A DNA stretch of 64,000 nt from Norana najaformis (taxonomy: Eukaryota > Annelida > Clitellata > Crassiclitellata > Hormogastridae), in assembly GCA_964023275.1 (NCBI GenBank), contig OZ029918.1:32793739-32857738 (forward strand), written 5' to 3'. This document shows positions 10,501 through 63,722 of this stretch, piece after piece (the first letter of the stretch is position 1; every line of letters starts with the position of its first letter). The notes beneath the pieces are model-generated. The model had not been told where the DNA came from. It saw only the letters and a list, made by a program, of their open reading frames with translations, and did not search any database. The position numbers and the translations under genes were made by a program.

Positions 10501-11248
10501 AGTGAAATAAATAGTTACCTTCTTAACTGCAACTATTTTGTCATTGTTACATCGATCTTTGGCCTTATACACCGTGGCAAACTACAAGACATCAAAAACC
10601 ACAGACCATTAGAAAGCTGTTACCACATAATCAACTTACAGTTGCTCTAACTTTTGGAACAGTTTGCCTCCCTATCGAAGCACATCACAGACTTGAGCTT
10701 TAAAGCATCTGAAACTGATTACAGACAAAACCAAGTTTCTGTGTGCAGCAGCTAGGGTGCTGCATCACGATCTCCACTGCCTTCCAATCAGCTACCAAAT
10801 CGTGGCATTTATCAATTACATCCAGACCACTTTATTCCAATTCCAAGTTGGTTTGATATTCACATTTGTATCGTAATCTTAATCCCGAGATTTCTACAGC
10901 GCCCAACCAAAGCCACGTCACGGGGACCATCTTATTCACAGGCGCTCAGTCAAACAAAATCGATAGGCAAAAGGGTTCAGTTCCAGGTCAAGATCCAAAA
11001 GTTAGGCAGAGAGACAACGTGGCAGCTACGGTGGGTGATAACTGGATTATGGATATTATGGATATACTGGTATTATGGATATATCACCCATACCGAATAT
11101 CCAATATCCGAACGTGATTATCAAACCAACTTTATACGGAGGTTGATCGCTGAAAGGAACAGACTGGTCATTCTAGTTTCATTTAACTTGCCTGGCCTTC
11201 ACCGAGAAATTCGATCTTTTCGTATCGTTTCAGTTTATCTTCGTCCAT
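4579..11248 (-). CDS. CDK7: Cyclin-dependent kinase 7 (CAK/TFIIH kinase)
   Basis: CDK7 with cyclin H and MAT1 forms the CDK-activating kinase and phosphorylates the RNA polymerase II C-terminal domain as part of TFIIH. Ten exons in transcript order: 11192-11248, 10519-10581, 9648-9749, 9198-9266, 8367-8477, 7295-7413, 6525-6624, 6027-6113, 5723-5872, 4579-4767. They join in phase to 1047 bp (348 aa; human is 346). Visible motifs: glycine loop GEGQFATVY (16-24), ATP lysine in VAVKK (Lys39), [17 protein letters not shown] (133-140), DFG (153-155) and T-loop SPNRIYT. Ser162 and Thr168 match human Ser164 and Thr170. [11 protein letters not shown] and [15 protein letters not shown] follow. Intron 1 has a GC donor (CAG/GCAAGT). 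The C-terminal tail is basic and diverged. The start is the ATG giving [11 protein letters not shown], aligned with human MALDVKSRAKRYEK. Confidence 0.95.
5000..5450 (-). mobile_element. CR1/L2-like LINE reverse transcriptase fragment
   Basis: It lies in the last CDK7 intron, same strand. In translation [16 protein letters not shown], then TRVDYGISF, then [10 protein letters not shown] correspond to the CR1/L2 consensus around SRLDYCNSLL and LQ-ILKAAAR. Frames are interrupted and the usual YCNS is altered, so it is a decayed copy. The segment GATTTAAATGTACA near 5395 recurs in the copy at 19.5 kb. Confidence 0.75.
6310..6516. repeat. Tandem repeat of about 36 bp in a CDK7 intron
   Basis: The unit contains AATGTACTAATAAATGTT and CTAACTATTGTACTAACT and occurs about five times with small gaps. 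It ends only a few bases from the 5' splice site at 6524. The open frames across it on both strands come from the repeat. Confidence 0.85.
8060..8360 (-). mobile_element. LINE reverse transcriptase core fragment
   Basis: It sits inside the CDK7 intron between exons 8367-8477 and 7295-7413. The minus frame reads [20 protein letters not shown] followed by VHPYAVDI. These are the RT motifs usually seen as VPQGSVLGPLLFILYTADL and VHLYADDT of CR1/L2-type LINEs, with the catalytic YADD changed to YAVD. The copy is short and decayed. Confidence 0.8.
10270..10465 (-). mobile_element. LINE 3' end, family B
   Basis: In CDK7 intron 1. The minus frame reads [16 protein letters not shown], the C-terminus of a CR1/L2-like ORF, then a tail containing GGTTGATGCCTTGTGCATTA and ending in an AT-rich run. 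The tail recurs at 14.2, 16.3, 22.4, 37.7, 41.9, 54.2 and 58.7 kb and differs from family A. Confidence 0.75.
10862..11040 (-). mobile_element. LINE 3' end, family A, in CDK7 intron 1
   Basis: The stretch from ATCTTAATCCCGAGATTTCT through CAGGCGCTCAGTC, ATCGATAGGCAAAAGGG and CTACGGTGGGTG is the reverse complement of the family A tail. It lies about 150 bp downstream of the CDK7 first coding exon. Confidence 0.8.
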
Positions 11249-21487: not shown

Positions 21488-21619
21488 TGTGAGGCACGAT
21501 GGTCTAGCGGTAATGCGTTTGGTCGATGATCATGCGGTTGCAGGGTCGACTCCGTGTAACGACCCTAGGCATGTTGTTTGCGCCCAACGTGCTTCTGTCA
21601 CCAAGCAGTAGTATACTTT
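21488..21619 (+). mobile_element. tRNA-derived SINE head
   Basis: GCACGATGGTCTAGCGGTAA has a tRNA-like A box and GCAGGGTCGACTCC a B box, spaced as in tRNA genes. The acceptor stem and structure do not support a working tRNA gene. Its body leads straight into the 81-bp tandem repeat. Confidence 0.7.
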
Positions 21620-22047
21620 GGTACCGGCGTAACCTGGGAAGGAAATGACAAATCCTGCGATGATTTGGACCCGTGTCCAGGACCTTGGGATTCGTCCATT
21701 GGTGCCGGCGTAAGCTGGGAAGGAAATGACAAATCCTGCGATGATTTGGACCCGTGTCCAGGACCTTGGGATTCATCCATTGGTACCGGCGTAAGCTGGG
21801 AAGGAAATGACAAATCCTGCGATGATTTGGACCCGTGTCCAGGACCTTGGGATTCATCCATTGGTACCGGCGTAAGCTGGGAAGGAAATGACAAATCCTG
21901 CGATGATTTGGACCCGTGTCCAGGACCTTGGGATTCATCCATTGTCACCAAGCAGTAGTATACTTTGGTACCGGCGTAAGCTGGGAAGGAAATGACAAAT
22001 CCTGCGATGATTTGGACCCGTGTCCAGGACCTTGGGATTCGTCCATT
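21620..22047 (+). repeat. 81-bp tandem repeat grown from a SINE body
   Basis: Units begin GGTACCGGCGTAAGCTGG at about 21620, 21701, 21782, 21863 and 21967. The first four are exactly 81 bp apart and almost identical; a 23-bp piece (TCACCAAGCAGTAGTATACT) also found before unit 1 separates unit 5. As 81 is divisible by three, long frames run through on both strands, but they are repeat artefacts. Confidence 0.9.
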
Positions 22048-22379
22048 GCCAGTGGAAGGGCATAAAGAAAAGGAAATGAGCACCTCCCATACGTCTCACT
22101 AGTGGAATATGGGATAGTTTACTTATTTTATTTACTTATAATATGTAGAAACCTTTTGCTCGACACAGCAGCATCAAAGTACCGCACCTCGTAGGACAGT
22201 TAGCCACAGGATATGGACTTCCACAAAAGGAAGTGGAGGGTAATGCCACATGCGGACAAGGGGGAGAGGTGCCAACAGTAAGTCATTTTGCGGACGTCTT
22301 TTATGGACGACCCTTCTGCTGGATTTCTGCCGGGCTTCCCAACAGATTACAATTTTTGGCTGGATTATACTTTAAGCGA

Positions 22380-24179: not shown

Positions 24180-24490
24180 ATGGAAGTAATCGTAATCGTA
24201 ATCTCGATATTTCTACAGCGTTCAACGAAAGCTAAGTCGCGGGAACCAGCTTATTCACAGGCGCTCAGTCAAAACAAAATCGATAGGCAAAAGGGTCAAG
24301 ATCCAGGAGTCAGGCACTCAGACAGTCGGAGGGCTACGGTGGATGCTGTTTGAAATTGAAGCGAGAAGAGAGATAAGGGGAAGAGGAAGAATCAGTATAA
24401 GATTTCTGGAAAAGAAGTGTTTTCAGTCTTGAGTGAAAGACCTGCGCAGAAACTGAAAGAGGTGAAGTGTTGGTGAGTTCGTATGATTGA
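24180..24490 (-). mobile_element. CR1/L2-like LINE 3' end, family A
   Basis: The reverse complement starts with a frame giving LSLKTENTSFPEI (ORF C-terminus), passes through a C/T-rich stretch and ends with the full family A tail (CCTATCGATTTTGTTTTGAC to ATTACGATTACGAT). It aligns with the plus-strand copy at 48.3-48.9 kb. Confidence 0.8.
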
Positions 24491-25084
24491 CCAGACAACT
24501 GTCTCAATCGTAATCGTAAAATTGAAACTGCTCAAGAACTCTTTAAAACCTAAGCGCGGGGCACCAGCTTATCCTAGATTGTTTTTGGAATAGGGAAGGT
24601 GTAAGCCCAAAACCGTTTTCGGGTTAAGGGTCTCTCAAGTTTAACGCAAACATTTAAATGAGTTGGAAAAATTCATCTGGAATTGAAACTTGAATTGGGC
24701 GTGGCTGTAAATCACTGTGCTCACCCCGAAAGATATAAAGGTAGGATTTTATGTTTAGGCTACTAGGAAATAGGCCTACTCAGCCAGCATGTCCATAGAT
24801 ATCTGTGACATTAAAACGCGAGATGTCCACTGTAAGTCTTGCCAATAGAGACCTAGTTATCCGATGTGATGTCTTTCAACTGATTTTGAGTGTACTTTAA
24901 ATTATATCATTAACCTACTGATTATATGATTAACCACCAATTTTGGCTGTACCATTCCAGTGTATAGTTACAAAAATAATAAGATACGTTGGAGGCCTTT
25001 TCTGTATGTGAGGCCTAGACCTAATGGCCCTGCTGCCCCCTGTGATAGGCCGTGCTGACTCGTACTGCGACATCCGAGTTACAC

Positions 25085-31996: not shown

Positions 31997-42556
<10,560 letters not shown>

Positions 42557-44227
42557 AGTGTTACAGATGAAAGCAGCAGAAGAAACTGTAGAAAAACATA
42601 CACAAATTCATTTGGATATGTATAACACATTTTCACTTTGAGATAATGGCCATTAGCTGTTATACTTTTCTGAAAAGGAAACGTATTCCATATAAAGTTG
42701 TACATTCTCTTCACTCTCATACACAGATGATCAGAAACAGGGTCTGAAGTTACATATGTGAAAAGATGCTAGAGCCTAACAAAATTTGTTAACCTGCAGA
42801 TGAACGAAGTTTGTAAGTTTCTGTGAACCAAATAAAGCCACCACTGATTACACTCAGTCCTGAAGGTAAATCACAGTCAGCTAATAAGCTAGATATTTTG
42901 ACTGGACATTTTAGAGTACTAAACATTTTGTAATATCTTTCTGCTTGCAGAGTTCTGAACACCATGCTTTTGGACAAGATGTACTGGACCATCTTCCTGA
43001 AACAGTTTTCTTCTGAAAAGCCGAACTGTTCTGCCTGATGCAGCAACAAACGCCGTTAAAACCCACCCATCTGATGCCACCCTGGATACAACACAAACGG
43101 CGCTACATTAAGTGGCTAATGGGTAACCTAAACAAACAGTAACCGCCAATCGCATCTCTAAAAATAAAACGGCAAACCGGACAATTAGCTTTAAGCATGT
43201 TAAAGTCTCAATCAGTGACAACTAGGTCAAACTTTTCTAGCGCCAGCCAGTGGTTACTTAAGTGGCTTACACAATATGTCAAACAGCTGAGGTGTCGCAG
43301 AGCTCAAACGCCTTTACCTATGCGCGGTCAACAATCAAATATTCCAAGAAAAACAGGGTTTTAAAATGCAAAAATTACTCGGCACCCGGTAAGACGATCA
43401 AGACTTGAAGCATTCAAGGAAAAAATTACCGTGAATTCTGACCCAGAAGATAATTCTTGTCAGACGTAAGCTACTATAAAACTTCCGGTCAAAATGTTCA
43501 ATTGGGTGTCTCAGACATTTTGTCCATGTCGAATTACTTTCTCCAGACTAAACTCAAATAGACATCGTCCACGATTATTAAAGCAAATTTAAATTCATCG
43601 TTTCATTTTATTGCTCCACAAAAGAAACAACAGCATAAGACATATTACATAAAAAATTCATGTGGGATACAACAGAAAGAATATGTTCCGCTTATTTGGG
43701 ACGCCTACGTCACATGGAATGATATTGAAATGACAAATAATCAATTTAACTGGCCTATAGTCCAGCTGGACTTGAGCAGAATATCATTAGTAAGTTAATT
43801 TTATATCTTAATAACCATAGTCAAATGAACAGCAGCCAAATGTAGACTGCAGGCCACTCGCTGTACAGGTGAGACTCATAACACAACGGAAAACTCAATA
43901 ATAAATGCAACCGCGTCATATTTGAAACAAAAATGTGCTACGCATGGCGCTTTTACTGGGGATTATCAGCGTAGCTATGAAGATTTTCATTTGTGAAAAT
44001 TTTGGAAGCTGAATGACAGTAAGTTCAAGGGCGCGAAGCGCCCGTAGGTAACCCAAACTTCCTTCTTAACACAAAAGAGCAATGACCAAAACACCGACTT
44101 TAAAAACCAATACCGACTCAGCTCAGCTGTATACAGCCTCAAACTTATTGTCATTCTACTTTCAAATTAATAGGCCTAACGAGTAAACTGTGGACCACAT
44201 TCATTCCAGCAAGAGGAATGCCGTTAG
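42557..44227. other. ICA1 upstream region; unexplained minus-strand frame
   Basis: It holds the presumed ICA1 5' UTR and promoter. A minus-strand frame of 87 codons at 42789-43049, open further upstream in another frame, has no recognised domain. No core-promoter motif is clear. 43.2-44.2 kb looks like plain AT-rich intergenic DNA. Confidence 0.3.
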
Positions 44228-46365
44228 TAGAGAGTGACTCAGTGACACGGGGAATGCGGCAATACCGCGGTTACTCCGGATTTTACCGCGGTAATGGTGT
44301 CAGAAGCGACGGTAATACCGTGGGGATGGAATAGAGACTTGCGGTAATACGTGGGGATGGAAATACGAGCACGTTAATTCCCGCGGTAACGGTTGTGGCA
44401 TTAGCAAAAACCCCCCACTGCATCAGGTTATTGCTTTTTGTTCTAAATTATTCGGCCGATTCAGTGTCACTAATAAAGCACTATATTGAAATTCTTGAAT
44501 ATTCGTGAATTCTTGAATATTCAATATGGGTTAGAAAGTAAATAAGAACACTCTTTCTTGCAGTGATATTCGACCTAAGAAATAAGACACCTCTTTCTGG
44601 CAGTGATATTCGACCTAAGAAATAAGACACCTCTTTCTTGCAGTGAACGGCCCTCGTTGCCATACGGCGTCATAAAACAACATCAGAAACTCTCTTGCAG
44701 TGATATTCGACCTAAGAAATAAGACACCTCTTTCTTGCAGTGATATTCTACCTAAGAAATAAGACACCTCTTTCTTGCAGTGATATTCTACCTAAGAAAT
44801 AAGACACCTCTTTCTTGCAGTGAACGGCCCTCGTTGCCATACGGCGTCATAAAACAACATCAGAAACTCTCTTGCAGTGATATTCGACCTAAGAAATAAG
44901 ACACCTCTTTCTTGCAGTGATATTCTACCTAAGAAATAAGACACCTCTTTCTTGCAGTGAACGGCCCTCGTTGCCATACGGCGTCATAAAACAACATCAG
45001 AAACTCTCTTGCAGTGATATTCGACCTAAGAAATAAGTCAACTCTTTCTTGCAGTGATATTCTACCTAAGAAATAAGACACCTCTTTCTTGCAGTGATAT
45101 TCGACCTAAGAAATAAGACACCTCTTTCTTGCAGTGGTATTCGACCTAAGAAATAAGACACCTCTTTCTTGCAGTGAACGGTCCTCGTCGCCATACGGCG
45201 TCATAAAACAACATCAGAAACTCTCTTGCAGTGATATTCGACCTAAGAAATAAGAAACCTCTTTCTTGCATTGATATTCAGTGATATTACCTAAGAAATA
45301 AGACACCTCTTTCTTGCAGTGAACGGCCCTCGTTGCCATACGGCGTCATAAAACAACATCAGAAACTCTCTTGCAGTGATATTCGACCTAAGAAATAAGA
45401 CACCTCTTTCTTGCAGTGATATTCTACCTAAGAAATAAGACACCTCTTTCTTGCAGTGAACGGCCCTCGTTGCCATACGGCGTCATAAAACAACATCAGA
45501 AACTCTCTTGCAGTGATATTCGACCTAAGAAATAAGAAACCTCTTTCTTGCATTGATATTCTACCTAAGAAATAAGACACCTCTTTCTTGCAGTGAACGG
45601 CCCTCGTTGCCATACGGCGTCATAAAACAACATCAGAAACTCTCTTGCAGTGATATTCGACCTAAGAAATAAGACACCTCTTTCTTGCAGTGATATTCTA
45701 CCTAAGAAATAAGACACCTCTTTCTTGCAGTGAACGACCCTCGTTGCCATACGGCGTCATAAAACAACATCAGAAACTCTCTTGCAGTGATATTCGACCT
45801 AAGAAATAAGACACCTCTTTCTTGCAGTGATGTTCGACCTAAGAAATAAGACACCTATTTCTTGCAGTGATGTTTGACTTAATCAAACGTAGGGCCTAAC
45901 GATCAAATAAATGATGAACAGTTTTGAAGTATTATGTATTATATGACCTACTAAGATCAGGCCTACAATATATACACATATTAGTCTACGTGATCTACTC
46001 TGACAACAAGAGTCAAGTGACATTCTCCACATTTTCAGCTTTTCTTTTGTCAAATAGTGAACTCAATTTTTTACAGTGGTATATCATTTATGTAAATATT
46101 CCAATTAATGTAGTTCCTGAGATTATATCAGTTTCTTAAAAACTGAGTTTGCGACTTAAGAATTATTTTGGCAGAGCGGATCACATGTGTGAGCATTTCA
46201 TTGTTTTTTGCTTCCCTGTGACGGGAATGGGGACGGAGACGGGGAAAGACCTGACGGGGACGGGATGGGGATGGGGACAGGTCTGATGGGATGGGTGGGG
46301 ATGGGAACAGACTCGCAGGTATGGGGTGGGGATGGAGAAATATTTTGTCCCCGTGTCACTCTCTA
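44228..46365. mobile_element. Non-autonomous hAT-like DNA transposon
   Basis: The ends are inverted repeats: left TAGAGAGTGAC then ACGGGG (with an 8-bp insertion TCAGTGAC between), right CCCCGTGTCACTCTCTA. An exact 8-bp direct repeat GCCGTTAG flanks it at 44220-44227 and 46366-46373, the target-duplication length typical of hAT elements. Subterminal regions are rich in GGGGACGG/GGGGATGG (46215-46335) and in CGGTAATAC/ACCGCGG words (44255-44400). No transposase frame is visible; most of the interior is the satellite array at 44555-45875. Length is 2138 bp. Confidence 0.85.
44555..45875 (+). repeat. Satellite: 40-bp monomer in a 137-bp higher-order repeat
   Basis: The basic 40-bp monomer begins TGATATTCGACCTAAG and ends CACCTCTTTCTTGCAG. 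A 57-bp variant beginning TGAACGGCCCTCGTTGCCAT recurs eight times; its spacing is mostly 137 bp (57+40+40), with 177 and about 218 where extra monomers lie. Both unit types end in CTTGCAG. The identical 61-codon minus frames spaced by 137 bp are repeat artefacts. Homogeneity suggests recent expansion. Confidence 0.95.
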
Positions 46366-46454
46366 GCCGTTAGCTTCGCATGCCGGTAAAGATGTCTCGC
46401 ACGTTTAAATGTAAATGTAGCCTACTCGTTTTTCTGTAGCAACCGTATGACCTC

Positions 46455-46560
46455 GACCCTGCTCATTTTTCAGTGAATGTATCTGGTGAGATTCTTTACC
46501 ACCGTTGCCCGTTTGAATGAGCGCCACGCCATTTAAGGTCTCCGTGTATGGTTTAGGTAT
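46455..46560 (+). repeat. Dispersed repeat shared with 63.05-63.15 kb
   Basis: CTGGTGAGATTCTTTACCAC, GCCGTTTGAATGAGCGCCAC-like words and CCATTTAAGGTCTCCGTGTA also occur, diverged, at 63050-63145. The repeat type is unknown; it could be a SINE core. Confidence 0.55.
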
Positions 46561-47017
46561 CTATAGGCCTACTAAAATGTAAACAGGCTGTAGGAATCAT
46601 TTGCATTTCTTTATCAGTGAACTGACTCCTCCAATAATTATAGCCCCTGATCTGCATATATTTTGTAAAATCTTTCGCACATAATCATTATGCAAATCTT
46701 TCGACTGTGACATGATGCTATTGACGCTGATCCTGCTTGCGTCTCAAACTTCAGAAGACTATGTTAAGCCAACCTATCGTTCTCATAATTGTGTGTCGGT
46801 CCCTAGAAACCAGTAGACTTATTATTAAAGTTATAACTTGACGCGATCCTTAATCCTACTGTTAGGCATATCGTAGATTCATTAGCACTTCTTATCTGTT
46901 GGGGGGCTATGTCAATAAGTGACTCCGTATTTACTCAAATGACCTCACATAGGTCTACTACGCTGAACACTGGGCGCCCGTGACTCGGTGGAGGTCATTG
47001 GCCTAGCCACTGCTTAT

Positions 47018-47390
47018 TCTTGAATATTCAATGTGGGTTAGAAAGTAAATAAGAACACTCTTTCTTGCAGTCATGTTCGACCTTAGAAATAAGACACCTC
47101 TTTCTTGCAGTGATATTCGACCTAAGAAATAAGACGCCTCTTTCTTGCAGTGATATTCGACCTAAGAAATAAGACGCCTCTTTCTTGCAGTGATATTCTA
47201 CCTAAGAAATAAGACACCTCTTTCTTGCAGTGATATTCGACCTAAGCAATAAAACACCTCTGAACGGCCCTTCTTGCAGTGATATTCGACCTAAGCAATA
47301 AAACACCTCTTTCTTGCAGTGATATTCGACCTAAGCAATAAAACACCTCTTTCTTGCAGTGATATTCGACCTAAGCAATAAAACACATGT
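47018..47390 (+). repeat. Second array of the 40-bp satellite monomer
   Basis: After TTCTTGAATATTCAATGTGG and GGTTAGAAAGTAAATAAG, the same left flank as the first array (44505-44550), come about nine monomers, later ones reading CCTAAGCAATAAAACACC. The 57-bp variant is absent apart from a stray CTGAACGGCCC. It lies outside the hAT-like element, about 650 bp to its right. Confidence 0.9.
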
Positions 47391-47394
47391 GTGC

Positions 47395-47531
47395 ACATGT
47401 TACCTGCTTATTAAACAGGGCTATAAAAGGACTGATCGTCGGTGCCAAAGCCTTAGTCAGAGTTTCACGGACGAAGAAGTGATTGGAAAACGAGTGAAGT
47501 CTTCTCGAAGTCAAATATAATTTAAGCGAAC
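47395..47531 (+). promoter_or_regulatory. TATA-type core promoter-like sequence
   Basis: TATAAAAG at 47422-47429 in a GGGCTATAAAAGGAC context is followed 30-37 bp later by CTTAGTCAGAG, a plausible initiator. An ATG comes about 75 bp further on. The sequence is GC-richer than its flanks. No transcript evidence is available. Confidence 0.45.
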
Positions 47532-47844: not shown

Positions 47845-47947
47845 ACCTGATTGTACGGGAAGGCTTCCGACGACCACTAAATTTGTTGTGTCGTCAAAAT
47901 TTTTGACGACCTTTCAGTCAGTAATGATCAATGGCCTGCACCAAAAG

Positions 47948-48002
47948 CAACTCAATGAAGGGCTGATCCAGGGATACCCTGGATCAGCCCTTCATTGAGT
48001 TG
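47948..48002. repeat. Perfect 26-bp inverted repeat with 3-nt loop
   Basis: The arms CAACTCAATGAAGGGCTGAT plus CCAGGG and their exact complement flank ATA. No mismatch is seen. The flanks show no direct repeat, so a mini-transposon is not supported. Confidence 0.9.
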
Positions 48003-48289
48003 ATTTGGGCAGTTAGAGTTTACATCTTTTATTTACTTAGTTTAGTGTAGGCCTACTTTGCTTTTATTTGAATGATGCTCTGAATCTCAGTTTTTTGCTT
48101 GCTCTTTACGAAGATTCTGACCCTGCTAATCTCCTTGTCGCAACTTTTAGGCCTATTTTGGCACGGAGAAATTTCGGAGATTTACATTAAAGTAAGACGT
48201 GCCTAAGTTGTAAACATTAAATTTTTCCTATAAACTTCTTACTTACATATTAGTGCTCATCCCGCTTGTTTTCGTGTCTTGAACGCCAT

Positions 48290-48875
48290 AGATACCGATT
48301 GTTTTCACAGAGCAGCTGAGGCTGACATTGTTACCGTCACATAAAGTAGTCTTATCCCTTACCTATAACACACTTCAATCCAACCCCCTATCTTCGTCAG
48401 TTATTTACAATCCAACCACTCCGTTCAACCCGCTCCTCTTCTTTCTTAACCCTTCATCGCCCTCCCGTCACGTCATCCTTAAAATTTGGAAATCGCTCAT
48501 TAGCCATAGCTGCTCAACCCTCTGGAATAAATTCCAGCCAGAGTAACGACAATTATCTGATCCATCATACCAATTCACCAACACTTCATCTCTTGCAATT
48601 ACTGTACTAATCTTTCACTCAAAACCGAGAACATTACATTCCACAAATTTTGTCCTAATTCTTCTTCTTCCCCTTATCTCTCTTCTCGCTTCAATTTCAA
48701 ACACTATCCACCGTAGCCGACTGCCTGCATGACTTCTGGATCTTGATTTGGAACCGAACCCTTTTGCCTATCGATTTTGTTTTGACTGAGCGCCTGTGAA
48801 TAAGCTAGTTCCCGTGACTTAGCTTTCGTTGGGCGCTGTAGACATCTCGAGATTACGACTACGATTAAGTAATAA
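48290..48875 (+). mobile_element. CR1/L2-like LINE 3' end, family A
   Basis: A frame holds CSTLWNKFQPE, the LWNSLP landmark, then SLKTEN- and FPK-like positions. A C/T-rich stretch and the full family A tail follow (GCCTATCGATTTTGTTTTGA, GAATAAGCTAGTTCCCGTGA), ending ATTACGACTACGATT. It aligns along its length with the minus-strand copy at 24.2-24.5 kb. Confidence 0.75.
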
Positions 48876-48959: not shown

Positions 48960-50217
48960 TTTTTAATTAACAAAATGATGATATAATTATGATAATTATA
49001 TTATTATAAATATCATAATATTATGATAATATTATGCCAAAAGTTTCCTTTCCGATTGCTTGCTTGCTTACTTGCTAGTCTGCATATTTATTTTTCTTAC
49101 TTGGGCATGCGGTTCCAGTTCAACGGAGGCGGTTGTCCAGTCGGTTGTTCTAGTCTAATTATAGCTCTTTGGTATGCGAAACGTTAACGGATTGTTTAAA
49201 CCCGCAACAATTGCTAAATAAAATTTATATCCGATTACAGTTTGTTCCGTTGGAATATCTGTTGTAATATATTGTCTGCCTTTTTTGAAATTCGTTATCT
49301 GAGTTTATCCCACTCTGAAGTAGATTAGTTAGTTTGAATGTAAAATGGCGACCTTAGTTTATTGTATCCCAGTCGCACAGGTTCACCATAGCTGTTAATA
49401 CTGGATTTTCAGGTTACAGACAAAGAATTTTAGGCGATGTTTTCGTTGCAACTTGCAATTTAGGAGGTTCTAATTTTCGCGGATTCTTTGCTGAATGATT
49501 TTGGACCCCGTAAGACTAGATTTTATGTTATAGTTCGCTTGACTACCGATGCGAATTAGCCTCGTGCTTAATTGCGCTGCATTTCGATGAAATTAGTAAA
49601 TAATGTACCACGACAAGTGTCGTGGTACATTATTTGAGAGCAGAATGCATATTCGGCATGAAACGGTTTTTGAATTGGAACTGGAGACCTCTGCATGAGT
49701 TTTATGACAGTCCAAGAAAGGAATCTGTAGGGTTAATTTGGACTTGAAGATTTAAAAGAACTGGGTTAAGAGGTGAAGGTAAGGTAATCAAACACTTTTG
49801 TATTAATATATTAGATACTTGAATTGATATTATATATTATGTTACATATTTCTATATTAACAGAGTCAAGTATCAGTGATTTAATTGGCTGGTGTGCACA
49901 TGTTACCTGCAATCCAAAGAAGTCTAAACAATCCAACATCTGGGTAACCTTTCCTTGCAGGCTGCTTGACTCAGAAAAGTGTCACTTTCTTATGGTGCCC
50001 TATTTCAAACCCTGCACAAAGGTGCAAATCTGATGTATTTTCCACAAAGCAAAAAGCAAGACAAGCAATGAGGCCAGAGCCAAGAGAAGACTTTTTTATG
50101 ATGTTTGATGAATATGGTTTGGTGAATGCTAAGCTTATTGTAATAGCTAATCGCCTACGATTCCTCGCTCAGCCGATGGACATATGGTGGGTTAACAAAT
50201 GTCTTACTTACTTATAG
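48960..50217. other. TBPL1 upstream region
   Basis: The left end is AT-rich (ATTATGATAATATTATG). 49.3-49.7 kb should hold the TBPL1 promoter and a 5' UTR exon, since the coding exon is preceded by an acceptor-like ACTTATAG near 50217. No TATA box or clear initiator is identified. A perfect hairpin lies at 49598-49635. Confidence 0.4.
49598..49635. repeat. Perfect 18-bp inverted repeat with 2-nt loop
   Basis: AAATAATGTACCACGACA and its exact complement flank AG. Located 0.6 kb upstream of the TBPL1 coding start. Confidence 0.9.
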
Positions 50218-50247: not shown

Positions 50248-53200
50248 ATGAACAACTTCCCAATTGAGCCGCCGACGGACTTGTTCTCTAGTGGATTACT
50301 GAGCCCTACTAGCAGTCTGTTTGATAGTCAGCTGAACTACCTTACGGACGTAACACAGATGCCAGATACAACTCACATGAACTTCTTTGCGGGCTTTAGG
50401 GATGACTTCTCAGTCTCGACGGGCTATGATGCATTGACAACAAGCATCTTGACAGGCTATGATACATTGACTACTAGTGCCTATGGCATGCCAGCATCTA
50501 GTGCTGGTCAGAATCAAGTGGCTGGTGGAGGAGTGAGTGCTGATGCAACAGTAATCTCTGGCACAGATGGGATGGTAGCTTTCACCAGCGCTGACACCAC
50601 AATGTTTGCAATCTCAAACACAGAATCCAGCACGGTTCTGTCAGGCGCTTCTTATGAAATGCAAGTGGTTGATAATTTGGCGGCACCTATCCCCAGCAAT
50701 ACTAGTGTGGCTTATGACACAAGTGTGGCTGGTACAAGTGTTGAGAGTTACGGTGCTGTACAGGAGGTTGTCGAAGCCAAAGAAGCAACGAATTCCGACG
50801 ACGACGTGCCTATTATTAACATTGCAATAAACAATGTCGTCTGCGCCTTTAACACAAAATGCTACCTCAATCTAAGAAAGATAGCCCAAAACGGGATGAA
50901 TGTCGAACACAAGAAAGCCCAAGGGGTAGGTAGGATTTGTGCTGTTTATTTGCTTAAATTTTAGTGTGATAAGACATATGCAGTTTTTTGGTGTAAGCGT
51001 CTTCAGGGAATCTCAGCAGTTCATTGACTGTACATGTCTCGACTCGTTGTTCTGCAGTTTCTAAAATAATTATTCTGATTCATTGTTCTGCTGCTTCTTT
51101 GCACAGAACCATCTATGCTTGCTCAGTTATCTGTAGGGGATACCAACTGAAGTCAGCGTAGCCTCGAGGCTTTTAAACACAGTACTTCAGACGAACTTTC
51201 TGTTTTGTTATATTATTTTATCTTTTTAATGTTATGTTGTCTGTACAACTATTTGTGTACTTTTGAATTGTATAACTTTAATCTTGTTCTGTACTGCTAA
51301 TTTAGTGAGCACTGCTGTTTAGTATTGATAATTGTAATAATATGGGACGTGGTGGTGTAGTGGTATGATCTGTGCCTCATAATCGGAGGGTCGCGGGTTC
51401 GAATCTGCCTCAAGCCTCTGCATAGTGACCTTGGACAAGTTGCTCGCCCACAGTCTGTGTGGAAGGCAACAGGAAACCACCTCACCCATCCCATCCCCGC
51501 TGGCATAAAGCCAATGGACCTGTCTTCGGGCAGAGAAATCATCATCATCATCATCAATTGTAATAATGATGACTTACCAGTGGCATATCACATGCTTCAT
51601 ATGTTAGCCGTACATATGTTAGCCGTACATATGTTAGCCGTACATATGTTAGCCGTACATATGTTAGCCGTACATATGTTAGCCGTTACATATGTCAGTA
51701 ATCCAGACAGTTTTTTTAATTTTAAGATTTTATGTACCTGAGGCAAAATGACACTAATAGTCATGCTAATAATGTAGTAATTAACGATTTGTGATTACAG
51801 TTGGTTTCTATGAAGGTGAGACATCCAAGCGTAACAGCCACTATTTGGGCAAATGGAAAAGTAACGTGCACAGGTTCTCGAAGGTACTGCTGATTCACAG
51901 AGCTTGAGCAGAACTAAATTTTGCCTTGTAAAATACAAATGACTCAGTAATATATGCATGCAAGAGTTTTATGCATGTTGTTATTCATAAAATCACTAAA
52001 ATCTGTTTACCATTCTGGTAAATATCTTTAAGAAACCAATATTTTTGTTTTGGAATGTTTTGCCTAAGCTAGACATTGTGATATGTTATTGGTGTGCAAA
52101 GAGGAGAGGTTTAAAATTTGCCAACATCGGTTTCAGGAGGATATATATGTTCTAAGTTTTAAAACTCTGTGGGAAAAAGGTGTCAAAGAGACCATAAGAT
52201 TAATTTAGGAAGTGGAAAGTTTCTCTTGAAAGCACCAACTTTTGGAAAATTGTATTGGCTGTGTAAAATGTGGCATGTGTTGTGTTTAATTTAAACTTTA
52301 ACGTGTCTTGATTTTTCTGCAATTTGACAGCGAGGAAGAGTCACACATTGCTGCTCGGAAAATCGCTCGCTGCCTACAGAGGATTGGCTGCAAAGTCAGA
52401 TTTACCAATTACCGTGTAGTCAATGTCCTTGGAACATGTTCTTTTCCATGGGGAATACGTATCCCTGAATTTTCTCGCAAATATCCCAGAGAGGCCAGGT
52501 ACGAAATTCACCATTTACCATTGCCATAGAGGTGGTAATATGTCAGCCTTGGATGAGAGTTTGTTGCTTGATGTGTATGTGTCTGAATGAGACTGCCAAC
52601 GGAGACTTTCTCAAGCTACACGAGCATAGTGTGTATGCGGATGAACTTGTTTGTTTAAAACTCTAATGTCATTTAGGCTAGTGGGAGGTGCATGTATGAG
52701 GTACTTGAAAGGTGTTATAAAATGCCCAGTTTTTAAGATGTATTTCAAATGAGTGGGATGTGGTGGTGTAGTGGTATGGTCGGTGCTTCGTAAATGGAGG
52801 ATCGCGGGTTCAAATCTGCCTCAAGCCACTGTGTAGCAAACTTGGACAAGTTGCTCACCCACAATTGTCTGTGAGGAAGTCAAAAGGAAACAACCTCGCT
52901 CATCTCATCCCCGGTTGGCATAAAGCCAATGGACCTGCCTTCAGGCAGAGAACTCATCATCATTGTTTCAAGTGTATATTAAGATGTGCATACATAGATT
53001 CGAGAGACTGAGGTCAACTGCAAGTAAACTCCATGTTACTTCAGCTTAAATTTTTATAGCTCCCAATGTTCCTTAAATTCAGTGATTCTGTTTCTGAACT
53101 TGCTGTGTGGAAAATTTTTTTAGATGACTTTGCCTGTTTTTTTGTGTTGCACAAAGTCAAAACAGTTGTGTAGCTACTAGACTTAAAAGGAACTTTTTAC

Positions 53201-62502: not shown

Positions 62503-63540
62503 CTGAAAAGTGAAGCAAATTGTGACACTGGTGGTAATTACTAGGTAAAGTACATCAAGGCTGTTGCTTATTTATTTACTTACACTAGAGTGATACAACG
62601 TAGTTCGAGGCTTGCAAAAAAATTAATTTAAAAAAAGTCGTTATAAAATGACGTCATTATAAGGCAGTTCTTGATATCACCAAAAGACAACGCTGTGTAA
62701 TCATTTATAACATGCCTCAATCAATAAGTTCTCAGTTGGGGTGATTTGTGGTAAACAGCAATGGGCTGAGGGTTTTGAAGACCAATGTGCAGGGGAAATT
62801 ATCATCAATGGAAGACAGTCTGAACCAGCACAATTTGTAGGATAAGTTATCCTCCGCCAAAATCACACCATGATTTTTATATGCATGGTCTTCCCAGGCA
62901 GGTCCTCGAGTTGAGAATCTTGACTGATGAAAAAACACGACAACAACCGGACTTTCCTTGGGGCTATATAGCTTAACAACGAATTTCAAATTTGTTATTA
63001 TTATTTCTGCATTTATTAAGTGCTATTATCTAATGACTAAGCATCAGCCGTGCCCATTTTTCAATGGACTGATTGGGTGAGATTGTTCACCACCACTGCT
63101 CATTTGAATGGGTGCCACACCATTTAAGATGTCTGTATACGTACCGTGGTAGTCCAAGATTCAAATCTCATAAATAATTATAGTCACAATTGGTAAGTGA
63201 ACCGGCAGCCTGATGCACAGATCTTTGCTTTATTCGATTTAGCTATCAAGCACCACAACCCACAAGAAGTCATAAATAAACTGTTCGCAAAATAACCCTT
63301 ACAAATTTTCTAAATTTTCACAGCTTCTTACTAAGTGCAAGAGACAGATAGAAGGTCAAAACAACTATCCCATACAAAAAATTCCTACTGTTGTTATTCT
63401 GATGCTATTCATATTTTGAATTTTCCCAACACCGATTTTTCAATGTTCTTATCTGCAAACAAGCAAGACAAAGCTATATGTAAACAAGTATTCCTGCAAA
63501 TAATATGATGAAATGTTGACATTTGTACCGATTCCTACAC
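62503..63540. other. Upstream part of F-box/NHL gene and repeats
   Basis: A minus frame at 62732-62989 (85 codons) has no recognised motif. 62995-63055 resembles the SINE-like element at 2.8 and 26.6 kb, and 63050-63145 matches the dispersed repeat at 46455. A missing first exon of the F-box/NHL gene may lie here. Confidence 0.35.
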
Positions 63541-63544
63541 TCTC

Positions 63545-63722
63545 AACTAATCGTAACCTCGAGATTTCTGCAGCATTAAGTGAAGGGAATCAGCATTATC
63601 ACAGGCGCTCAGTCAAAACAAATCGATAGGCAAGAAGGGTTCGGTTCCAAGGTCAAGGTCAAAGAGGCAGGCAAGCAGGCAGGCAGGCAGGCAGTCAGAC
63701 GGCTACGGTGGGTAGAGTTTCG
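63545..63722 (-). mobile_element. LINE 3' tail, family A, with GGCA expansion
   Basis: GTAACCTCGAGATTTCTGCA, ACAGGCGCTCAGTC and CTACGGTGGGTAG are the family A tail in reverse. The CAGGCAGTCAGACAG part has grown into a GGCA microsatellite (AGGCAGGCAAGCAGGCAGGC). Confidence 0.8.

What the first reader, a model, noticed from the sequence alone, without database searches (positions are those of the whole stretch)
44228..46365. hAT-like non-autonomous transposon that carries a satellite array
Exact 8-bp direct repeat GCCGTTAG flanks matching TAGAGAGTGAC...CGGGG inverted ends, and the interior is mostly a homogeneous higher-order tandem array rather than transposase. A mobile carrier would explain how the same monomer reached a second place (47.0-47.4 kb).
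Basis: partly seen in the sequence, partly recalled or inferred. Interest (0 to 1): 0.75.

Follow-up and report, generated by a model that had tools for sequence, protein, structure and literature searches.

The report
Transposon-like element carrying a satellite array
A 2.1-kb stretch of animal DNA has the hallmarks of a cut-and-paste jumping element that cannot move by itself and is mostly filled with a short repeated sequence; such repeat-carrying elements are known, and how this one got its cargo is still open.

Summary
A 2138-bp element (44228-46365) lies between exact 8-bp direct repeats GCCGTTAG and has inverted tips TAGAGAGTGAC. At that stringency it is the only hit in the window that is not simple sequence; 25 Markov-resampled windows gave none. 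New here: both ends share a 42-bp subterminal segment with paired GTGGGGATGG motifs, in direct orientation. About 63% of the element is an array with a 40+40+57 = 137-bp higher-order unit; no transposase match was found. The hAT-like, non-autonomous reading is structurally supported but rests on one copy: no host genome is held.

The explanation offered for the second array (47.0-47.4 kb) is not supported. That site shows no trace of the element's arms. The two loci share an internal module: a 56-bp leader (55/56 identical) plus monomers. Capture of a leader+array module by the element, or export from it by recombination, fits better than insertion of a second copy. In passing: the two leaders hold all 4 perfect three-unit heat-shock-element patterns of the window. 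Tandem-repeat-carrying MITEs are known: a new member of a known kind.

The parts
44220..44227 (.). target-site duplication GCCGTTAG, left copy
44228..44253 (+). left terminal inverted repeat: TAGAGAGTGAC, then TCAGTGAC (8-bp duplication), then ACGGGGA
44320..44361 (+). left subterminal segment with two GTGGGGATGG motifs, alignable in direct orientation to 46295-46336
44492..44522 (+). cluster of heat-shock-element-like patterns (TTCnnGAAnnTTCnnGAA at 44492, TTCnnGAAnnTTC at 44510), overlapping a duplicated leader start
   Evidence: function inferred only
44509..44564 (+). leader shared with the second array (55 of 56 identical)
44540..45882 (+). tandem array (TRF span): 40-bp monomers A (TTCGACC) and B (TTCTACC), one 48-bp variant, and eight copies of a 57-bp unit C; C-to-C spacing 177,137,217,145,137,137,137
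45883..46200 (+). right arm, inner part; no similarity elsewhere in the window, no transposase match
46256..46310 (+). G-rich right subterminal region; G-quadruplex pattern matches start at 46256, 46257 and 46288 (end approximate)
   Evidence: pattern only
46295..46336 (+). right subterminal segment, direct match of 44320-44361
46348..46365 (-). right terminal inverted repeat TAGAGAGTGACACGGGGA (read on the minus strand)
46366..46373 (.). target-site duplication GCCGTTAG, right copy
47016..47071 (+). second copy of the leader, with one heat-shock-element-like pattern at 47017
47047..47386 (+). second, shorter array of the same 40-bp monomer (TRF span, overlaps the leader), with a remnant of unit C at about 47261 (TGAACGGCCCT, read by eye); no hAT arms nearby

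Best explanation
44228-46365 is a non-autonomous cut-and-paste DNA transposon with hAT-type ends that inserted once at GCCGTTAG, and whose interior is not transposase but a leader+tandem-array module. Inferred steps: (1) a hAT-like parent lost its coding interior, for example by abortive gap repair after excision; (2) its interior came to include a leader with some tandem monomers, the same module that lies at 47016-47386 (0.65 kb past the element's right end, upstream of a TBP-family gene), copied from there or from a common source; (3) the array grew by unequal exchange or slippage at the 40-bp and 137-bp levels and probably in a 274-bp block, before or after insertion; (4) a transposase supplied in trans, recognising the TIRs and the GTGGGGATGG subterminal repeats, placed it here. 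Shown: the ends, the flanking duplication, the subterminal segment, the array structure and the shared module. Inferred: transposition by a hAT enzyme, the capture, its direction, and trans-mobilisation. The confidence given is for the core claim (non-autonomous transposon with hAT-like ends and an array inside); the capture step alone I put at about 0.45.
For: Exact 8-bp TSD and 11-bp TIR, 0 comparable hits in 25 Markov versions of the window. The tip TAGAG fits the hAT pattern Y-A-R-N-G (recalled). Published hAT features, TIRs of 10-25 bp and 8-bp TSDs, are stated in PMC3942097 (passages). Both ends share a 42-bp subterminal segment: score 21 against at most 18 in 400 Markov versions of the last 180 bp of the element, and at most 13 in 156 stretches from the first 44 kb of the window. 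All 5 TGGGGATGG on the plus strand of the window lie in the two ends (0.05 expected), none on the minus strand (0.2 expected). Hermes also has subterminal repeats, asymmetric between its ends and bound by the BED domain (passages of PMC10368747). No transposase match in six frames of 42.0-52.0 kb. The array has a 137-bp higher-order unit, and the monomers at 45233 and 45515 share the same two changes, as expected from duplication of a two-unit block. The leader is shared 55/56 with the second array while neither arm is found there.
Against: Only one copy is seen; no second insertion, empty site, autonomous relative or transposase could be sought in the host because its genome is not held. GCCGTTAG misses the Hermes-type consensus nTnnnnAn at position 2 (consensus) and, by recall, the Buster pattern nnnTAnnn. 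The subterminal segment is in direct, not inverted, orientation. The left TIR is broken by an 8-bp duplication. The element (2138 bp) is mostly array, so little of a parent element is left to identify. The dispersed repeat in the right flank (46457-46548, copy at 63048-63139) starts at the 84th base after the TSD and so gives no empty site. For the capture step: the order of events between the two arrays is not resolved.
Confidence: 0.72

Rival explanations
1. The array was born inside the hAT-like element, and the second array is an internal piece of this or another copy, moved by ectopic recombination or repair, or left after loss of the ends. (A rival to the capture step, not to the transposon reading.)
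For: The second array holds A- and B-type monomers and a short remnant of the 57-bp unit C, so it is related to a mixed A/B/C array like that in the element. A model in which MITEs with longer arrays lose their ends and become plain satellite arrays is described for miDNA4 in PMC12628747 (passages).
Against: No remnant of either arm flanks the second array: local alignment scores are near the shuffle means (left arm 10 against 9.8, right arm 12 against 11.1, 150 shuffles each). The second array is the more diverse one (7.3% against 3.6% within-array difference), which fits an older array, although a short array may also homogenise less.
Confidence: 0.3
2. The leader+array is a mobile or satellite family of its own (for example the core of a Helentron-like or other repeat element) that is nested in, or was captured by, a hAT MITE.
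For: The left boundary of the module is shared at both sites. The second copy is flanked by a 9-bp direct repeat CTGCTTATT (47010-47018, 47404-47412), and the 19 bp that follow its array recur at 49892. Central tandem arrays are common in Helitron/Helentron elements (PMC12628747, passages).
Against: The 9-bp repeat is weak: 6.5% of 5000 random segment pairs share a 9-mer, and it overlaps the leader. I recognised no termini of another element class, but ran no dedicated search for Helitron ends. The right boundaries of the two arrays differ.
Confidence: 0.25
3. The ends belong to another superfamily with 8-bp target duplications (P, Merlin, MULE with variable TSD, Zisupton-like), not hAT.
For: The TSD misses the Hermes-type consensus, no transposase has been seen, and TSD length alone is shared by several superfamilies (recalled).
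Against: The TAGAG tips and short TIRs fit hAT best; Merlin tips begin GG and P tips CA (recalled, not tested).
Confidence: 0.2
4. The flanking repeats are a coincidence and the locus is only an expanded minisatellite.
For: Single copy.
Against: 0 comparable TIR+TSD hits in 25 Markov versions of the window, plus an independent subterminal match between the two ends.
Confidence: 0.03

Closest known systems
miDNA4 MITE/satellite of Xenopus (Scalvenzi and Pollet 2014; seen only as described in passages of PMC12628747 and PMC9659126)
   Same: A non-autonomous TIR element with a satellite-like array of variable copy number inside; [quoted passage not shown]
   Different: miDNA4 is Tc1/mariner; here the TSD is 8 bp with hAT-like tips, and the array has a higher-order unit.
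Pearl-family MITEs of bivalves, such as DTC84 and CvA (passages of PMC5139131; the original DTC84 paper is not held)
   Same: Modular non-autonomous elements with short internal satellite-like arrays.
   Different: Those arrays are described as up to six monomers long; here the element holds 21 monomers of 40 or 48 bp plus eight 57-bp units. Ends and monomers were not compared.
Tetris foldback element of Drosophila virilis (passages of PMC4079207)
   Same: Non-autonomous, 8-9 bp TSDs in its three complete copies, internal tandem repeats that seeded satellite arrays, no autonomous relative found.
   Different: Its repeats lie inside long TIRs; here one array sits between short TIRs.
hAT elements Hermes, hobo and BuT2 (passages of PMC10368747, PMC2803484, PMC3942097, PMC12628747)
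   Same: 8-bp TSD, short TIRs, in Hermes subterminal repeats that differ in arrangement between the ends; hobo is reported to have expanded to 16 tandem copies.
   Different: No transposase here; the TSD does not match nTnnnnAn; the array is inside the element, whereas for hobo the report is of tandem copies of the element itself.

Membership tests
hAT superfamily (non-autonomous) | 8-bp target-site duplication | tested here: met
   GCCGTTAG exact on both sides
hAT superfamily (non-autonomous) | short TIRs of 10-25 bp with hAT-type tip | tested here: met
   11 bp perfect, TAGAG tip; left end interrupted after 11 bp; length range, tip consensus recalled
hAT superfamily (non-autonomous) | target consensus nTnnnnAn (Hermes; Ac group by recall) | tested here: not met
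   GCCGTTAG has C at position 2 and A at position 7. The consensus and an in vivo Hermes table, in which some single sites also deviate, are in PMC2803484 (passages). By recall it marks a subgroup, not the superfamily
hAT superfamily (non-autonomous) | subterminal repeats near both ends (shown for Hermes; not required of all hATs) | tested here: met
   GTGGGGATGG pairs within 134 bp of the left tip and 71 bp of the right tip, direct orientation
hAT superfamily (non-autonomous) | related autonomous element with hAT transposase (BED, hATC) and the same ends | not testable with these tools
   no host genome held; no transposase match in six frames of 42.0-52.0 kb; the rest of the window was not scanned in six frames
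MITE | multiple copies with different target duplications | not testable with these tools
   one copy in 64 kb; genome not held
Tandem-repeat-containing MITE | non-coding element with a tandem array between unique end segments, the same repeat also outside | tested here: met
   copy number not testable
Helitron/Helentron with central array | no TIR and no TSD at the element boundary (recalled) | tested here: not met
   the element has TIR and TSD; for the leader+array module alone the question stays open

The most novel reading that the evidence does not exclude
The leader+array is a stress-responsive transcription or promoter module that travels. The two leaders hold all 4 perfect three-unit heat-shock-element patterns of the window, most monomers carry a strong 3' splice-site-like tract (CTCTTTCTTGCAG), and one copy rides in a hAT-like carrier while the other ends about 36 bp upstream of the TATA-like box of a TBP-family gene. 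A transposon would then be spreading an HSF-driven satellite transcript or enhancer.
Probability: 0.06. Interest if true: 0.75.

Novelty: new member of a known kind. Interest (0 to 1): 0.36.

Why it matters
It is a clear anatomical example of a DNA-transposon end pair enclosing a higher-order satellite-like array, next to an end-less copy of the same leader+array. A pair like this lets one ask whether transposons pick up satellites or breed them, once the host genome can be searched. Otherwise the phenomenon is already described in several animals.

Tried and rejected
Empty site: the joined flanks were aligned to the dispersed repeat at 63048-63139; the similarity starts at the 84th base after the TSD, so it says nothing. 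Degraded second hAT copy around the second array: no signal of either arm. Second array as a TSD-flanked insertion: a 9-bp direct repeat exists, but 6.5% of random pairs share one too. Rfam: no match at the gathering score in the window. Transposase: Pfam on six frames of 42.0-52.0 kb, E up to 0.05, gave TBP in two + strand frames (one above, one below its curated cut-off) and LCE6A in two - strand frames (both below the cut-off; by their positions they fall on the array). Six of the ten long ORFs were also scanned; none gave a transposase. The TBP ORF had no match among solved structures by sequence.

Exact-pattern scans gave 0 stretches in viral contigs (monomer, TIR twice, unit C, leader) and in genome contigs (monomer, unit C). 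These collections are viral and prokaryotic, so the zeros say nothing about copies in the host. Paper searches that combined hAT with satellite or tandem-repeat terms (listed 20 of 52, 1 of 1, 15 of 22 and 9 of 9 papers) or with its target duplication and tip (6 of 6 listed) showed none that I could recognise, from titles and starts of abstracts, as describing a hAT-ended element with a higher-order array inside. This is a weak negative.

Full report
SETTING. The window is from an animal by its gene content: split genes, including a TBP-family gene on the + strand (Pfam TBP at about 50.82-50.92 kb, below the curated cut-off, and at 51.76-51.88 kb, just above it). A first-exon-like reading frame from about 47532 and a TATA-like box at 47422 were read by eye. 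By recall the sequence looks like the TBP-like factor TBPL1/TRF2; this was not tested, and the species is unknown. No genome is held for the window, so everything below rests on 64 kb.

OBSERVATION. The element is 44228-46365, 2138 bp, flanked by GCCGTTAG on both sides, the only two copies of that word on either strand. The tips are TAGAGAGTGAC, 11 bp perfect. In the left end an 8-bp tandem duplication separates the tip from ACGGGGA; in the right end they are continuous. Among pairs of 11-bp inverted repeats with exact 8-bp flanking duplications within 10 kb, 4 were found: three are CATA/TA simple sequence and one is this element; 25 Markov versions of the window gave none. That control does not model simple repeats, which is why the other three appear.

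SECOND LINE OF EVIDENCE FOR THE ENDS. The subterminal regions of the two ends are related: 44320-44361 aligns with 46295-46336 in the same orientation, with a GTGGGGATGG motif at each end of the segment. Its score of 21 was reached by none of 400 Markov versions of the last 180 bp of the element (maximum 18) and by none of 156 stretches taken from the first 44 kb of the window (maximum 13). All 5 TGGGGATGG on the + strand of the window lie in the element's ends, against 0.05 expected, and none is on the - strand. Subterminal repeats with different arrangement at the two ends are known in Hermes, where the transposase BED domain binds them (PMC10368747, passages). The direct orientation here is unexplained; one possibility (inference) is that one end was copied from the other during gap repair.

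INTERIOR. The array takes 1343 of 2138 bp. It consists of 40-bp monomers A and B, which differ at one position, one 48-bp variant, and a 57-bp unit C, most often as A-B-C of 137 bp; C-to-C distances are 177, 137, 217, 145, 137, 137 and 137. Of the eight C units, six are identical to the consensus. The monomers at 45233 and 45515 are identical to each other and carry the same two changes, consistent with duplication of a two-unit block (TRF also reports period 274). The longest stop-to-stop frame touching the element has 76 aa and runs into the left flank. The six-frame Pfam scan of 42.0-52.0 kb found TBP, and weak sub-threshold LCE6A matches that fall on the array.

SECOND ARRAY. 47047-47386 (TRF span) has the same consensus monomer and more divergent copies: mean difference 7.3% over 15 pairs (6 monomers), against 3.6% over 190 pairs (20 monomers) in the first array. 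Left out before these counts: the 57-bp units and one 48-bp unit of the first array, and one 49-bp and one partial unit of the second. The similarity does not begin at the monomer: the 56 bp up to the first standard monomer are 55/56 identical at the two sites. The second array also carries a remnant of unit C, TGAACGGCCCT (read). Neither arm of the element can be detected around it (scores near the shuffle means). A 9-bp direct repeat CTGCTTATT around the second array is suggestive, but 6.5% of random pairs of segments also share a 9-mer.

MECHANISM. The most economical account is a hAT-type internal-deletion derivative whose interior contains a captured leader+array module, followed by array growth through unequal exchange or slippage, and a last transposition into GCCGTTAG by an enzyme supplied in trans. 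Abortive gap repair is named as an origin of MITEs in PMC8504770 (passages); that it can copy nearby sequence into the gap is recalled. Direction is undecided: capture from the second site, birth in the element with later export, or a common third source. The 0.72 is for the core claim; the capture step alone is put at about 0.45, and the rival confidences are not exclusive of the core claim.

WHAT IS KNOWN. MITEs and other DNA elements with internal satellite-like arrays are described in Xenopus (miDNA4, Xstir), bivalves (pearl family, DTC84, CvA) and Drosophila (Tetris, DINEs) (passages of PMC12628747, PMC9659126, PMC5139131 and PMC4079207). In PMC9659126 the word hAT was found twice, both times in the reference list, so its table of TE-derived satellites does not name the superfamily. 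hobo, a hAT element, is reported in PMC12628747 to have expanded to 16 tandem copies, which is a different arrangement. The present case is a further member of the known kind, with hAT-like ends and a higher-order array.

SIDE OBSERVATIONS. The two leaders hold the only perfect three-unit heat-shock-element patterns of the window: TTCnnGAAnnTTC at 44492, 44510 and 47017, and GAAnnTTCnnGAA at 44497; about 0.3 of each expected. This was seen after the fact, among many motifs that could have been tried; three of the four come from one duplicated stretch, and the fourth is its homologue. HSF1-driven transcription of human satellite III is described in PMC9032817 (passages); nothing here shows transcription. 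Of 23 matches to ten pyrimidines-N-YAG on the + strand, 22 lie in the two arrays (16 in the first: 15 of its 20 forty-bp monomers and the 48-bp unit; 6 in the second: all 6 full 40-bp monomers), and 4 more lie on the - strand, none in an array. As the motif is part of a repeated monomer, this is one event multiplied. The right subterminal region contains G-quadruplex patterns.

LIMITS. One copy, no host genome, no transposase, no empty site. The negative collection scans are uninformative for an animal element.

Noticed in passing
44492-44522 and 47017-47029: All 4 perfect three-unit heat-shock-element patterns of the window lie in the leaders of the two arrays.
   Followed up: partly
44565-45868 and 47072-47386, + strand: Most 40-bp monomers (15 of 20 in the first array, 6 of 6 full ones in the second) end in a 3' splice-site-like tract, CTCTTTCTTGCAG; 22 of 23 such matches on the + strand of the window are in the arrays.
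   Followed up: partly
47389-47407 and 49892-49910: A 19-bp exact repeat GTGTGCACATGTTACCTGC follows the second array and recurs 2.5 kb downstream; local alignment does not extend it.
   Followed up: partly
47941-48009 and 49598-49635: Two near-perfect hairpins (33-bp arms, 94%; 18-bp arms, 100%) in the putative first intron of the TBP-family gene.
   Followed up: no
51343-51548 and 52754-52963: Two copies (85%) of a repeat that begins like a tRNA-derived SINE and has an ATC-rich tail; SINE reading by eye from the first copy.
   Followed up: no
24187-24503, 48548-48867, 1941-2091, 10870-11019, 37436-37683, 63548-63678: A dispersed repeat family with at least six copies or pieces in the window, in both orientations.
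   Followed up: no
51598-51695: A nearly perfect 15-bp minisatellite (6.5 copies, CATATGTTAGCCGTA) in the TBP-family gene region.
   Followed up: no
21618-22048: An 81-bp tandem repeat, 98% matches, inside a minus-strand stop-to-stop frame of 165 aa at 21598-22095.
   Followed up: no
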